Below are positions 59,085 to 63,982 of a stretch of 64,000 nt of DNA, in pieces; position 1 is the stretch's first letter, and each line of letters begins with the position of its first letter. Source of the DNA: Streptomyces piniterrae. Lineage in GTDB: Bacteria; Actinomycetota; Actinomycetes; Streptomycetales; Streptomycetaceae. The position numbers and the translations under genes are program-made. The stretch is from NCBI RefSeq assembly GCF_005048155.1, contig NZ_SUMB01000004.1, positions 1 to 64,000 of the forward strand, written 5' to 3'. A model generated the notes under the pieces. That model was not told the DNA's origin and ran no database searches. It saw only the letters and a list, made by a program, of their open reading frames with translations.

Positions 59085-60485
59085 CTAACCGGGGAAACGG
59101 GCGCCCAGCTCGTGGAGGAAGGCCACAGCTGTCCGGGTTCCGCGGTGGAAGCAGCTGATGGAGAGTCGTTCGCCCGGGGCGTGCATCCGATCGTCGGGGA
59201 GGGCGAACCCCATGAGTACGACAGGCAGGTCGCGCCGGCGTGCCAGTTCGGCCACGACCGGGATCGTGCCGCCGGAACGGAGCAGCACGGGGCGGCGGCC
59301 GAAGCCCTGCCGGAGGGCCGCGACCGCCGCCTCGACAGCCGGGCCGCGGGTGGGCAGTTCGACCGGCGGTGCGGCGGACAGGCGACGCAGGCGGACCCGG
59401 ACTCCGGCGCGGGCTGTCGCTCGGAGGTGCTGCCGCAACGCTTCCTCGACCACAGCGGGATCCTGGAAGGGGGCCAGGCGCACATTGATACGGGCGGTTG
59501 CCGAGGAGGGCACGATGCTCTGCCTTCCGGGGCCGGTGTAGCCGGCTTGCAGACCGGTGATGACGCAGGCCGGCCGGATCGTGGTGCGCTCGTACGCCGA
59601 CCATCCGGGCTCAACCGTTCCCGGGCCCGGCCGGTGGGCGCGGGCGAGGGCCAGGAGTTCGTTGTCGGACGGTCCGGACCGGGCCGATACTCGGCGGGCG
59701 GACTCGGTCAAGGCTCGCGTTCCCCATCGTAGTTGCGGCAGCGGCGTGCCGTCGGCCAGGTGGAGGCCGGCGACGATCCGGCACAGCTCGCGGGCGGGGT
59801 CGGCCAGCGCACCGCCGTAGGTTCCGGAGTGCACGTGGGTGGTTGCCCCGTTGACGGTGAGCTCCAGGTTCAGCGAGCCCCGCAAGGAGACGGTGAGCGC
59901 CGGCGTGGTGGCGTCGCGCATCCGGGTGTCGCTCACCACCGCGACATCCGGCTGCCATCGGGCCCAGTGCCGGTCCAGAAAGGCCGGCAGGTGCGGGCTG
60001 CCGGCCTCCTCCTCGCCCTCGAAGACGCAGCGGACGTTCACCGGGAGGCGGCCGACTGAGGCGAGCCAGCTCTCCACGGCGGCGACGTGGGTGAGCAGTT
60101 GCCCCTTGTTGTCCGAGACGCCGCGTCCGACGAGCAGGTCGCCGCGCCGTGTTGGGCGGAACGGCGGGCTCGACCAGGCGGCGAGAGGTTCGGCCGGCTG
60201 CACGTCGTAGTGCCCATAAATCAGCAGGGTGGGGCGCCCCGGCCGGTTTCCCCAGCCGGCGGTCACCACTGGGTGACCGCCCGTCGCCACGACGCGGGCG
60301 TCCTGCAGCCCGGCGCGGCGTAGCCGGCGGGCCAGCAGCCGGGCCGCCCGCCGGACATCCGAGCGATGCGCCGGCTGGGTGCTGACGCTGGGGATGGCGG
60401 CCAGTTCGACGACGTCGTCCAGGAAGCGGGCCCGGTGGCGATGGGCGTACCGGAGGGCGGCGGCCAGCGGGGCGGGCGTCCCCAT
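59085..60485 (-). CDS. M20-family metallopeptidase (dipeptidase-like)
   Basis: 466 residues. The first metal motif is LLIYGHYDVQPAEPL (His and Asp), the second GRGVSDNKGQLL (bridging Asp), then FEGEEEAGSPHL (catalytic Glu plus ligand) and VVSDTRM (Asp); the lid domain has GTYGGALADPA and the last His is in RMHAPGERLS (HAPGE). These are complete for an active co-catalytic M20 exopeptidase of the CNDP/PepV group. ATG 60485. It lies 125 bp downstream of the three-gene unknown operon and might be its fourth gene, but the gap makes this uncertain. Confidence 0.9.
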   Translation of the reverse strand: MGTPAPLAAALRYAHRHRARFLDDVVELAAIPSVSTQPAHRSDVRRAARLLARRLRRAGLQDARVVATGGHPVVTAGWGNRPGRPTLLIYGHYDVQPAEPLAAWSSPPFRPTRRGDLLVGRGVSDNKGQLLTHVAAVESWLASVGRLPVNVRCVFEGEEEAGSPHLPAFLDRHWARWQPDVAVVSDTRMRDATTPALTVSLRGSLNLELTVNGATTHVHSGTYGGALADPARELCRIVAGLHLADGTPLPQLRWGTRALTESARRVSARSGPSDNELLALARAHRPGPGTVEPGWSAYERTTIRPACVITGLQAGYTGPGRQSIVPSSATARINVRLAPFQDPAVVEEALRQHLRATARAGVRVRLRRLSAAPPVELPTRGPAVEAAVAALRQGFGRRPVLLRSGGTIPVVAELARRRDLPVVLMGFALPDDRMHAPGERLSISCFHRGTRTAVAFLHELGARFPG

Positions 60486-60609: not shown

Positions 60610-61836
60610 CTATCGCGGCACCCGGGTGCGGGGGCGGCGGTCCGCCGGCATTCCACTGCCCCGGTACACGCCGAGTCCGCCCCTTCGGCTGTGCGCCGGC
60701 CGAGTGCTGCGCCGGGGGACGGCGTCGGCGCCCGCGGCGACACCGACGGGCCGGTGCCGGTCCCAGGGCAGCACCCGCTCGGCCTCGGTCCTGTTGGCGA
60801 GGCCCAGAGACTGGGCGGAGGTGATCCATTCCTCCGCGCTCTCGGCGATCTCCAGCAGCAGGGTCTCGAACTCGGCCCTAGTGGACTCGAGGATGTGCGG
60901 TGCGGCGAGCCAGCGCATCACCTGGCGTCCGGTGACACCCATACGCTGGCGCGGCGAGGTGACCAGCCGCTGGTCGAAGTAGCGGATGAGGACTTCGTCG
61001 ACCACATCCCAGGCGTTGTCCGCGCCGAACAGCTTCTTCACGTCTTCGGAGCCGAGGATCCGGAATGCCTCGTCGAGCAACTGCATGACTTCCACGCGCA
61101 GCACGTTGAGGTGGCCGTAGGAGGTGAACTTCAGGTTGTTGCGCAGGTCGAGACCGGCGCGGCGGACGATCGCGATGCTGCCGAAGCTCGGGTCGTATGC
61201 GCGCATCCGGATCACGTCCGAGATGCGCTTGTCCCGCCAGAACAGCGCTACCTGGTTGTTGAAGTGGGTGAACAGCGTGTGGAAGTCGGTGTTGGGACGG
61301 GAGCCCGCCGCGCCCGCGCCGCGCCCGTAGCCGAGGATCCGCCGGTAGGCGGCCATCCGGTCCTTGCGGGTGTAGCGCAGCACATCGCGCCGGTCGAACT
61401 TGTACAGGCCGAAGGCACCCGGTCCGTCCGACAGCCGCAGCGCGCCGCCCTGGAACAGCTCCTGGAGTTTCTGCACGACCTTGAACACGCCGATTTTCTC
61501 GTGTTGGTAGAGGTAGTAGAGGTCGCCGACCGCGTGGACGCGCTCCGAGGCGACTGTCTCGTCGTAGGCCTCGACCCCCGACGGCATACGTGTCGCGCCC
61601 AGCTCCTGTGCGGCCTGCGGGCCGAGGCCGGTCAGCTGTGCCAGGCCTCCGTCGGGTGGCGCGGGTTTGGCCTGGTCGGACTTCTCGACGTTCTGGAGCA
61701 TGTCGTCGAGTTGCTTGACCAGCGCGTCGCCGAGTTGTGGATTGACGGTGAGTTCGTTGGCGAGGCGGCTGGCGACCTGCTGGCGCAGCGCGGCGACGCG
61801 GTCGTAGAGGTCTCGGTACTCCTGCTCGGTGGCCAT
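60610..61836 (-). CDS. Unknown protein, third gene of uncharacterised operon
   Basis: 408 residues, soluble. It begins with a coiled-coil helix (EQEYRDLYDRVAALRQQVAS), followed by QLTGLGPQAAQELGATRMPS and YLYQHEKIGVFKVVQKLQEL, LYKFDRRDVLRYTRKDRMAA, FHTLFTHFNNQVALFWRDKR. The helical core (to about 360) has no motif I know; the last 50 residues are basic, Pro-rich and likely disordered. ATG 61836 with GAAGGAGAACCCG upstream, 75 bp after the preceding gene, so it belongs to its operon. Aromatic- and Arg-rich surface patches suggest protein interaction. Confidence 0.7.
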   Translation of the reverse strand: MATEQEYRDLYDRVAALRQQVASRLANELTVNPQLGDALVKQLDDMLQNVEKSDQAKPAPPDGGLAQLTGLGPQAAQELGATRMPSGVEAYDETVASERVHAVGDLYYLYQHEKIGVFKVVQKLQELFQGGALRLSDGPGAFGLYKFDRRDVLRYTRKDRMAAYRRILGYGRGAGAAGSRPNTDFHTLFTHFNNQVALFWRDKRISDVIRMRAYDPSFGSIAIVRRAGLDLRNNLKFTSYGHLNVLRVEVMQLLDEAFRILGSEDVKKLFGADNAWDVVDEVLIRYFDQRLVTSPRQRMGVTGRQVMRWLAAPHILESTRAEFETLLLEIAESAEEWITSAQSLGLANRTEAERVLPWDRHRPVGVAAGADAVPRRSTRPAHSRRGGLGVYRGSGMPADRRPRTRVPR

Positions 61837-61910
61837 CGGGTTCTCCTTCGTCCCGGGTGCCGGTCGGTGGGACGGGCCGGCTACTTCTGCTTCGGGCGGC
61901 GGGCGGGTGC

Positions 61911-63494
61911 CTACGCGTCCTTGTTGGCAGCCTTCTTGGCCGGCTGTTTTTCGGCGGCTTTTTCTACGAACACATGGATCCAGTCGTCCACCTGCACCGG
62001 GGGCCAGGAATCGCCGGGCCTGCTCTCGTAGACCGCGAGCTCGTAGGGGCCCGGTGTCAGCGGGTATTCACGATTGTGCTTGCACAGGTCGAACTCGACC
62101 CGCAGCTGCCCCGAGCTGTCGTCGCACGACTGGGGTGTCCCTTCCAGGATGTCGCCGCCGGGCTCGAGGATGGCAACTTTGTGCAGGCCGGGCAGGAAGC
62201 CCGATCCGGTCAGCAACAGCTGCTCTTCGCGCCCGAGTTGGAGGACGTTGGGTTTGGCGTTGGCGATCCTGACCGTGATGTGTCGGTGCACGGTGCGTGC
62301 GGTGTCCCGGGCCTGGCGGAGGTACTGGTACAGCTCCAGGACGGCCATCTGGACACGGGCGGAGTAGAAGCCGGGCGGCTTGTGGCCTTCCGGATCCATA
62401 CAGACGACGATCCGGCCGTTGCCAGACGGGTAGGCGCTGAGAATGTGGCATAGCAGGAGCCTGGACAGCTGGTCGAGTACGGGGGAAACAGCCATTTCCA
62501 CCGCATCCTTGCCCCCGCTCTGGATGACCTTCTTGGCCTCGTGCGTCGCGAATTCATGGATCCAGCGCAGCAGGCCTTCAAGGGTGAGCGAGGTGTCCTT
62601 CAGCGGGATCGTCTGCCGTTCGCCAGCGTTGAGGTAGACCGAGTCGAACGCGGACCACACCGACTCCACCTGCCCGCTCACCGCGGCGAGCTCCTGGGAG
62701 AGCAGGACCAGGGTCGTGCCGAGGAAGCCGCCGGTGGTGCCCTGCCCGATGATCTGGGGACGCTGCTGCTTCCAGCTCGCATGGAGGGAGAGCACCCAGT
62801 CCTGCAGGGTGAGGAAGCTCGTCTGGATGCGTTCCTCCTCGATGGTGTTGACGTTGTCCCCGGTGAGTCCGAACTGCTCCCTCAGGGCCGCGAGATGGCT
62901 GCCTGCCGGAAGGCTCTTGGCATCGGTATACGCGTACTCGCTCCCGTTTCCGCATCCGGGGCTGCCGGCGACCGACGGCAGACCGGTGAGCAGCGACAGC
63001 AGGTTGTCCACGCGCTCGGGCCTGATGATCGGTGATTCCAGTTCCCTGAGGAGTTCCTCGAGTTCGTGGCGCACCAGGGAGCGGAACGCCTCGGCGTCCT
63101 GCACGTCCGGGTCGACCCGCAGCGGGACGAGGGAGTCGAGCAGGGGCAGCGCGTCGCGCACCGCGGTACGGGCTCGTGCGGCGAGCGACGCCTGGCCGCC
63201 GGTGACCTGGCCCAGATCCGCCTGTACGGCGTGGCCGCGCGGGGTCCAGACGGCCTCGTTGTGGCCCTCGACGCGTTTGAGCTGGAAGCTCCCGGTCAGC
63301 GCCGCGACGAATCCCTCGACGTCCTGGCCGCGTGCTCGCCAGCCCAGTACGTCGCTGATCGTCTGCTCGGCCAGCCGGCCCAGGTCCCCGTCAGCCGATC
63401 CGGTGGTGGCGCCGGGCCGGACCTCCTGGGTCAGCACGGGGAACGGGGATTCGCCTTCTGCGATGTCGATGCAATTCGGGGGTTTCGCGTTCAT
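61911..63494 (-). CDS. Unknown protein with C-terminal IPT/TIG-like domain, second gene of operon
   Basis: 527 residues, no signal peptide. A long helical part (about 30-400) includes HELEELLRELESPIIRPERV, DNLLSLLTGLPSVAG, QTSFLTLQDWVLSLHASWKQ and LLRWIHEFATHEAKKVIQSG. The last 130 residues form a beta-sandwich with PNVLQLGREEQLLLTGSGFL and GPYELAVYESRPGDSWPPVQ, where LTGSGF is characteristic of IPT/TIG Ig-like domains; the tail is Lys/Ala-rich. ATG 63494 has GAGGGAGGTCGAG in front, 12 bp after the stop of the previous gene. TIG-like domains in bacteria often belong to surface, phage-tail or injection-apparatus proteins; function unknown. Confidence 0.7.
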   Translation of the reverse strand: MNAKPPNCIDIAEGESPFPVLTQEVRPGATTGSADGDLGRLAEQTISDVLGWRARGQDVEGFVAALTGSFQLKRVEGHNEAVWTPRGHAVQADLGQVTGGQASLAARARTAVRDALPLLDSLVPLRVDPDVQDAEAFRSLVRHELEELLRELESPIIRPERVDNLLSLLTGLPSVAGSPGCGNGSEYAYTDAKSLPAGSHLAALREQFGLTGDNVNTIEEERIQTSFLTLQDWVLSLHASWKQQRPQIIGQGTTGGFLGTTLVLLSQELAAVSGQVESVWSAFDSVYLNAGERQTIPLKDTSLTLEGLLRWIHEFATHEAKKVIQSGGKDAVEMAVSPVLDQLSRLLLCHILSAYPSGNGRIVVCMDPEGHKPPGFYSARVQMAVLELYQYLRQARDTARTVHRHITVRIANAKPNVLQLGREEQLLLTGSGFLPGLHKVAILEPGGDILEGTPQSCDDSSGQLRVEFDLCKHNREYPLTPGPYELAVYESRPGDSWPPVQVDDWIHVFVEKAAEKQPAKKAANKDA

Positions 63495-63505
63495 CTCGAC
63501 CTCCC

Positions 63506-63982
63506 TCAATGGGTCATGACTACGTCGTCGGTCGCCGCGTCGGCCAGCTCACCCAGGCAGCGCAGCAGGATCGTGTCCACCGCCCGCAGCGGCTCGGCGC
63601 AGCGGGCGATCCCGGCCCGCAGCCCGTGGGCCCACGCCTGCCACTCGTGGCCGGACTCCCGGCGCGCGGCGCCCTGGACGGCGCGGAGCACGGCGCCGAC
63701 GGCCCCGAACGAGCACAGGTCCTCGTAGTAGCGGCGCCGCATCCGATCCAGCGGGCAGGCCGCCTGGGACAGCGCATGCCCCGGGGCCGGGCGGTCCAGC
63801 TGTGCGAGGGCCTCGTCGAGATCGCCCCGGCCGTCCGCGATCACCTCGGCGATTCGGTCCGCCGCGGCCAGCCCGGCGCCGGGCGGGCGGTCCTCGTCGG
63901 CGGTTACGGCCAGTTCGCGCCAGGCGGTGTGGAGCCGCTGCACCGCTGCGCGGAGTTCCTGGACTTCTCGGGTGAGACTCAT
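63506..63982 (-). CDS. Unknown helical protein, first visible gene of operon
   Basis: 158 residues, helical, without signal peptide: SLTREVQELRAAVQRLHTAW, DEALAQLDRPAPGH, RMRRRYYEDLCSFGAVGAVL and LRAVDTILLRCLGELADAA. Its stop is 12 bp before the ATG of the next gene. ATG 63982 is only 19 bp from the window's right end, so further genes of the operon may lie beyond. I recognise no family; small Glu/Arg-rich helical proteins of this kind commonly act as adaptors or chaperones. Confidence 0.65.
   Translation of the reverse strand: MSLTREVQELRAAVQRLHTAWRELAVTADEDRPPGAGLAAADRIAEVIADGRGDLDEALAQLDRPAPGHALSQAACPLDRMRRRYYEDLCSFGAVGAVLRAVQGAARRESGHEWQAWAHGLRAGIARCAEPLRAVDTILLRCLGELADAATDDVVMTH

What the first reader, a model, noticed from the sequence alone, without database searches (positions are those of the whole stretch)
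60610..63982. Uncharacterised three-gene operon with a TIG-like protein
Three tightly spaced genes (158, 527 and 408 residues) without recognisable families except an IPT/TIG-like domain. Size, lack of signal peptides and tight order suggest a cytoplasmic complex, possibly phage-tail or injection-system derived. The operon continues beyond the window.
Basis: inference. Interest (0 to 1): 0.55.

Follow-up and report, generated by a model that had tools for sequence, protein, structure and literature searches.

The report
Unnamed mobile protease-and-effector gene cassette
The three unknown genes are the tail end of a larger, unnamed gene cassette found in distantly related bacteria, with a probable protease, acid-tagged proteins and a slot where different enzymes, some of them likely toxins, are exchanged; what it does is still a hypothesis.

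Summary
The three genes are real (minus strand: A 63982-63506, B 63494-61911, C 61836-60610) and belong to a conserved cassette that continues beyond the window: GerE/LuxR-type regulator (divergent), E1, E2, Z, A, B, C, M20 peptidase. E1/E2 carry acidic-aromatic repeats; Z keeps HExxHN...ExxxD in 21 of 21 sequences. A genome scan with C gave 29 loci in six phyla at 56-74% identity. Z-B-C are collinear in 26 of 30 loci, and a full set sits on a Paraburkholderia megaplasmid. This genome's A, B, C, Z, E1 and E2 match no Pfam family above cut-off; Foldseek finds no solved fold for the B and C models. The slot after C varies: M20, M35, M15 and trypsin peptidases, Het-C, GIY-YIG nuclease; in four loci one constant N-terminal domain precedes different C-termini. 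Acid tags: 5 of 22 slot ORFs, 1 of 181 others. Best reading (0.42): a tag-organised effector cassette of bacterial conflict, delivery unknown. Phage-tail derivation is not supported, though contractile-injection genes occur elsewhere in 12 of 21 carrier genomes tested. This genome's slot holds only an M20.

The parts
63506..63982 (-). gene A, 158 aa, small core protein between Z and B; genes upstream of it lie beyond the window (Z 63987-65540, E2 65416-66204, E1 66205-67578 on minus; GerE regulator 67708-68238 on plus, window numbering continued)
   Evidence: ORF; 25-37% identity in 10 of 29 loci; upstream genes
61911..63494 (-). gene B, 527 aa, helical core plus C-terminal beta (TIG-like) domain
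   Evidence: ORF; family in 27 of 30 loci; model; relatives with PASTA, TIG, CarboxypepD_reg above cut-off
60610..61836 (-). gene C, 408 aa, most conserved core protein, all-helical model
   Evidence: ORF; 29 loci at 56-74% identity; alignment; model
59085..60485 (-). M20-family peptidase, occupant of the slot after C in this genome (start at 60485 inferred; longest frame begins 60743)
   Evidence: Pfam Peptidase_M20 E 3.6e-26 and M20_dimer E 2.3e-13; M20 follows C in 13 of 30 loci

Best explanation
An effector cassette of bacterial conflict, organised by an acid tag. Shown: a conserved gene order across phyla; an invariant HExxH-type pattern in Z; acidic-aromatic repeats on E1/E2, on the C end of C in some lineages and on some slot proteins; and a variable slot that in other genomes holds nuclease, peptidase and wall-acting domains, once as a constant N-terminal domain with different C-termini. 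Inferred: E1/E2 form a membrane-active scaffold (their acid repeats alternate with amphipathic, glycine-rich segments), A-B-C form the core, swapped Ig-like or PASTA domains of B bind a surface, the acid tag docks cargo, and Z cuts E1/E2 or cargo to arm the assembly. Not known: whether it acts on rivals outside or kills the own cell when infected, and how anything would leave the cell.
For: Gene order: Z-B-C collinear in 26 of 30 loci; an E-type gene before Z in 25 of 25 loci with DNA there (24, L005); regulator family in 20 of 30. Transfer: complete set on a Paraburkholderia plasmid; C tree mixes phyla. Z: H223, E224, H227, N228, E266, D270 invariant in 21 sequences. Slot: GIY-YIG L032 and M35 L007, M15 plus PG-binding L081, trypsin L030 and PG-binding/OmpA L022, Het-C L009, all above Pfam cut-offs; constant N-terminus with different C-termini in L019, L025, L032, L082. 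Tag: 5 of 22 slot ORFs against 1 of 181 others (Fisher p 5e-5). Distant relatives of C beside S8 peptidases and of Z beside CHAT proteins.
Against: No activity is shown. The own slot, and 12 other cassettes, hold an M20 peptidase, which is an ordinary enzyme type; several have an amidohydrolase. Only L032 of the four constant-N-terminus proteins has a named toxin-like end. Motif and slot rule for the tag count were set after a first look, and 17 of 22 slot ORFs lack the tag. No immunity gene was sought, no export machine found, and no NTPase as in described conflict systems was recognised.
Confidence: 0.42

Rival explanations
1. A peptide-degrading or peptide-processing assembly for nutrition or turnover: Z, M20 and amidohydrolase act in sequence, and E1/E2 hold them together.
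For: M20 follows C in 13 of 30 loci; amidohydrolase family in 5 loci, Pfam-confirmed in L038 and L080.
Against: Nuclease (L032), Het-C (L009) and wall-acting slot domains; membrane-active-looking segments in E1/E2 (by eye); no transporter recognised.
Confidence: 0.2
2. A helper or cargo set that works with contractile injection systems encoded elsewhere in the genome.
For: Sheath and tube in 12 of 21 carriers tested; cyanobacterial carriers 5 of 9 against 31 of 288; GerE regulators also beside eCIS loci.
Against: 9 of 21 carriers have neither family; the association is not size-matched and from one phylum; the own E-[FY]-E pattern is confined to E1/E2 and not near the own tube gene.
Confidence: 0.12
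3. E1/E2 are precursors of membrane-active peptides: acid spacers mask short amphipathic segments that Z cuts out.
For: E1-type proteins repeat short segments such as FLGGLAKIAGSLLGEGE between acid stretches; a protease is next door.
Against: No exporter recognised; E1/E2 also have a conserved C-terminal domain and basic tail, unlike simple precursors; does not explain A, B, C.
Confidence: 0.1
4. A complex derived from phage tails.
For: Tight operon, no signal peptides, Ig-like domains on B as on tail proteins.
Against: No match in phage records, viral contigs, PHROGs or BFVD; no tail family recognised in the cassette.
Confidence: 0.05

Closest known systems
Polymorphic toxin systems (PMC3482391, passages seen)
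   Same: Constant N-terminal domain with exchanged C-terminal domains; toxin-like domains; processing peptidases
   Different: Seen in 4 loci only, not in this genome; no described export marker found; immunity genes not sought; core proteins unrelated by family searches
Extracellular contractile injection systems, eCIS (PMC8213781 and PMC11297309, passages seen)
   Same: Cargo enzymes of many kinds, GerE regulator, environmental hosts
   Different: No sheath, tube or baseplate in the cassette; 9 of 21 carriers lack sheath and tube
NTP-dependent conflict systems of multicellular bacteria (PMC7159879, passages seen)
   Same: Similar host groups, peptidases, Trypco2-like protein beside a distant C relative (L040, sub-threshold E 0.0098)
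   Different: No NTPase recognised in the own cassette; different core
Bacterial gasdermin plus protease (recalled, from no call)
   Same: A protease next to a possible membrane-active substrate
   Different: No sequence link tested or seen; E1/E2 are acidic repeat proteins

Membership tests
Polymorphic toxin system | Constant N-terminal part with different C-terminal toxin domains | tested here: inconclusive
   Seen in L019, L025, L032, L082; only L032's end is a named toxin-like domain (GIY-YIG); not in the own copy
Polymorphic toxin system | Immunity gene beside the toxin | not tested
   No search made
Contractile injection system or phage tail | Sheath, tube and baseplate genes in the cluster | tested here: not met
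   None among own cassette genes; tube and sheath lie on other contigs or far away in the genome
Contractile injection system or phage tail | Tail-protein fold of B or C | tested here: inconclusive
   No significant Foldseek match in PDB or BFVD; VIA second look middling only
IPT/TIG domain (B) | Pfam TIG match | tested here: inconclusive
   Own B none at E<=1; beta domain in model; TIG above cut-off in relative L023
HExxH zinc metallopeptidase (Z) | HExxH plus downstream acidic ligand, conserved | tested here: met
   H223, E224, H227, E266, D270 invariant in 21 of 21; 29 loci not all included
HExxH zinc metallopeptidase (Z) | Match to a named peptidase family or measured activity | tested here: not met
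   Pfam gives only T6SS_FHA_C at E 0.0039, below cut-off; no related PDB sequence; activity not testable here
NTP-dependent conflict system | MoxR, STAND or other NTPase in the operon | tested here: not met
   No NTPase family among the own cassette genes
M20 peptidase (59085-60485) | M20 core and dimerisation domains above cut-off | tested here: met
   E 3.6e-26 and 2.3e-13

The most novel reading that the evidence does not exclude
A protein-only delivery or self-killing particle unrelated to phage tails: E1/E2 perforate membranes, A-B-C form the body, B's swapped domains choose the target, acid-aromatic tags load exchangeable enzymes, and protease Z arms it.
Probability: 0.22. Interest if true: 0.9.

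Novelty: categorically new. Interest (0 to 1): 0.64.

Why it matters
A six-gene core without a catalogued family in the libraries searched, present in seven phyla (Paraburkholderia included) and on a plasmid, points to a shared weapon, defence or machine that annotation has missed. The acid-aromatic tag gives a handle that can be tested directly by fusing it to a reporter. 'Categorically new' rates the gene set, not a shown mechanism: if the slot reading is right, the cargo side belongs to a known kind (polymorphic toxins) and only the core is new.

Tried and rejected
C's profile against PDB sequences gave a type III antifreeze hit at E 0.0023; its two pieces have i-E 2.1 and 8.8, so I treat it as chance. 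Z's and B's best PDB-sequence rows are designed helical proteins, E 0.012 and 0.028, also taken as chance. Second looks by VIA: B best Z 10.2 (rmsd 3.3, 118 aligned; helical bundles, Cas12a and alpha-pore toxins among the rows), C best Z 5.9 (rmsd 3.1, 56 aligned). Both lie within what the tool reports for unrelated helical models, so no likeness to pore toxins is claimed; folds not listed there are not excluded. By eye I took a Tolypothrix protein (L039 16309-17619) for a B relative; profile comparison gave probability 0.0%, so I dropped it. In the distant gene sets only C (97.4-98.7%) and Z (E 2.2e-38 and 2.3e-24) are confirmed. The absence of membrane segments does not hold for the whole cassette: 16 of 27 Z-family ORFs reach a Kyte-Doolittle mean of 1.6 (the ORF ends are not curated). 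Literature: five tag letter strings gave 0 papers; the other searches listed no title that names this cassette. One search listed 12 of 20. Only open-licence papers are held, and I saw listings, abstract starts and passages of four papers, no whole text.
Full report
Observation. The three ORFs are at the stated coordinates on the minus strand, 158, 527 and 408 residues long, with Shine-Dalgarno-like stretches before B and C. Transcription runs A, B, C from right to left, so the operon continues upstream, to the right of the window. None of the three matches Pfam at E<=1, or NCBIfam or PADLOC at E<=0.1; PHROGs gives one weak row for A, E 0.079.

The rest of the operon. The window is bases 1-64000 of contig C22, so its numbering can be carried on: Z 63987-65540 (longest frame; relatives suggest a later start), E2 65416-66204, E1 66205-67578, then on the other strand a regulator 67708-68238 with a GerE domain, E 1.2e-14. 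Z, E1 and E2 have no Pfam match above cut-off; Z has one sub-threshold row, T6SS_FHA_C, E 0.0039. Downstream of C lies an M20 peptidase. Its longest frame overlaps C, but homology begins only near residue 107, so the ATG at 60485 is more likely.

Spread. A back-translated scan of the species-genome collection with C found 29 loci at 56-74% identity in Actinomycetota, Acidobacteriota, Chloroflexota, Cyanobacteriota, Planctomycetota and Armatimonadota, several of them metagenome bins. It is rare: 1 of 41 relatives (own only), 1 of 396 genomes of the own phylum (own only; at most four candidates per genome are shown as scored), and 6 of 292 in the phylum of L031, a Scytonema, two of them distant at 36% and 30%. 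A set of E, E, Z, A, B, C, an M20-like gene, an amidohydrolase and the regulator lies on a 2.4 Mb Paraburkholderia plasmid. In the C tree of 29 rows cyanobacteria form one group, but actinobacteria need 4 changes (at least 2 forced by well-supported branches) and Chloroflexota 4 (at least 3 forced). Two identical Streptomyces rows and a Streptosporangiaceae row group with a Chloroflexota row (98/92), while the own protein groups with Saccharopolyspora (94/91). This fits transfer between phyla.

Gene order. Of 30 loci, own included, Z-B-C are collinear in 26. L008 and L023 are cut by contig ends, L012 has B by tblastn, L029 has C alone. Z is found in 27 loci; 25 of these have DNA before it, and each has an E-type gene there (24, L005). 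The regulator family occurs in 20 of 30, an M20 after C in 13 of 30 (12, L016). Of five further loci taken from the cyanobacterial sample, L080, L081 and L082 have E, Z, B and C; L079 has E, Z and C in divergent form; L083 has only a distant C, E 1.6e-23, and a weak E match.

The proteins. C is modelled all-helical (mean pLDDT 71), best Foldseek match in the PDB E 0.35. B has a confident helical core and strands at 417-512 (mean pLDDT 76), best match E 0.27. B relatives carry PASTA (L030) or TIG (L023), and CarboxypepD_reg (L016, L017), above Pfam cut-offs, domains known from cell-surface proteins (established knowledge); six of the ten B relatives had no match above cut-off. Z keeps H223, E224, H227, N228, E266 and D270 in 21 of 21 sequences, a zinc-peptidase pattern. 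Among 44 E-type ORFs the median first half is 25.5% acidic and the last 80 residues 23% basic; short amphipathic and glycine-rich segments lie between the acid repeats (by eye). The dense E-[FY]-E DNA pattern occurs 4 times in the own genome, all in E1/E2. Of 17 carrier genomes 16 have it; by my count from the listing 118 of 126 hits lie at cassette coordinates and 8 on other contigs of G444, G446 and G447, which were not followed.

The slot. What follows C on the same strand varies: M20 (13 of 30); M35 aspzincin L007 and GIY-YIG L032; M15 plus PG-binding L081; trypsin L030, DUF2272 L027 (its CHAP match is sub-threshold), PG-binding plus OmpA L022, OmpA L019; Het-C L009; further E-type genes in L024 and L026. 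Scanned slot genes without a match above cut-off: L019 second gene, L020, L028 and the second gene of L027, L025 and the second of L007, L082 and three of L080, one with a sub-threshold GIY-YIG row. L019, L025, L032 and L082 share a conserved N-terminal domain and then differ. Acid tags sit in 5 of 22 slot ORFs (L007 twice, L019, L022, L025; in L019 at residue 128) and in 1 of 181 other ORFs of the same loci, core families left out of both counts (Fisher p 5e-5). ORFs were picked by rule, not curated, and the rule was set after a first look, so the p-value is optimistic. The W-L-F-E-[AT]-P tag occurs 3 times in G642, all in its cassette; of 12 other carriers 10 lack it and 2 have it on other contigs, and the reversed control pattern occurs once each in two genomes. 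That variant is therefore not general.

Wider relations. The central domain of C recurs beside S8 peptidases on Tolypothrix and Burkholderia pyrrocinia plasmids (profile probability 97.4-98.7%). Distant Z relatives stand beside CHAT genes on two rhizobial plasmids, one also with patatin, phospholipase D and M4 peptidase genes. This resembles the company of described conflict systems (PMC7159879, passages), but no NTPase was recognised in the own cassette.

Is it a phage-tail machine? C and B have no relative in 50,697 phage records, C none in IMG/VR, and the B model's best BFVD match has E 0.16. Tube and sheath families lie elsewhere in 12 of the 21 carrier genomes that I tested, the same 12 for both, and in none of the other 9; other carriers were not tested. 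In cyanobacteria 5 of 9 carriers have the tube family against 33 of 292 in the phylum sample, or 31 of 288 without four carriers (p 0.0018; one phylum, not size-matched). So the cassette does not contain such a machine and does not need one everywhere, but an association in some hosts stays open.

Verdict. The finding points at a real conserved gene set for which the libraries and paper searches named here gave no name. I hold a tag-organised effector cassette to be the likeliest reading (0.42), ahead of a peptide-degrading assembly (0.20), a helper set of contractile injection systems (0.12), peptide precursors (0.10) and a tail derivative (0.05); the rest is left for something else. No function was tested.

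Noticed in passing
G000:C23:328567-329841: The own genome carries a tube gene and, next to it, a sheath-family match on another contig: a likely contractile injection system, separate from the cassette.
   Followed up: no
L040:3326-19483 (Burkholderia pyrrocinia plasmid pBPJTT): An unannotated gene set with two C-domain proteins, an S8 peptidase, a 1,254-residue amidase and four look-alike hypothetical proteins.
   Followed up: partly
L077:8076-24916 (Bradyrhizobium quebecense plasmid) and L078:4806-14633 (Sinorhizobium terangae plasmid): Distant Z relatives beside CHAT-domain genes; in L077 also patatin, phospholipase D, GMC oxidoreductase and M4 peptidase genes.
   Followed up: partly
L003:12110-13933 (G000:C22 near 74110-75933): A long run of N inside an open frame of the own contig, a withheld stretch.
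   Followed up: no
L080:11055-16469: Three slot genes with a W-L-F-E-[AT]-P N-terminus, the only three in that genome.
   Followed up: partly
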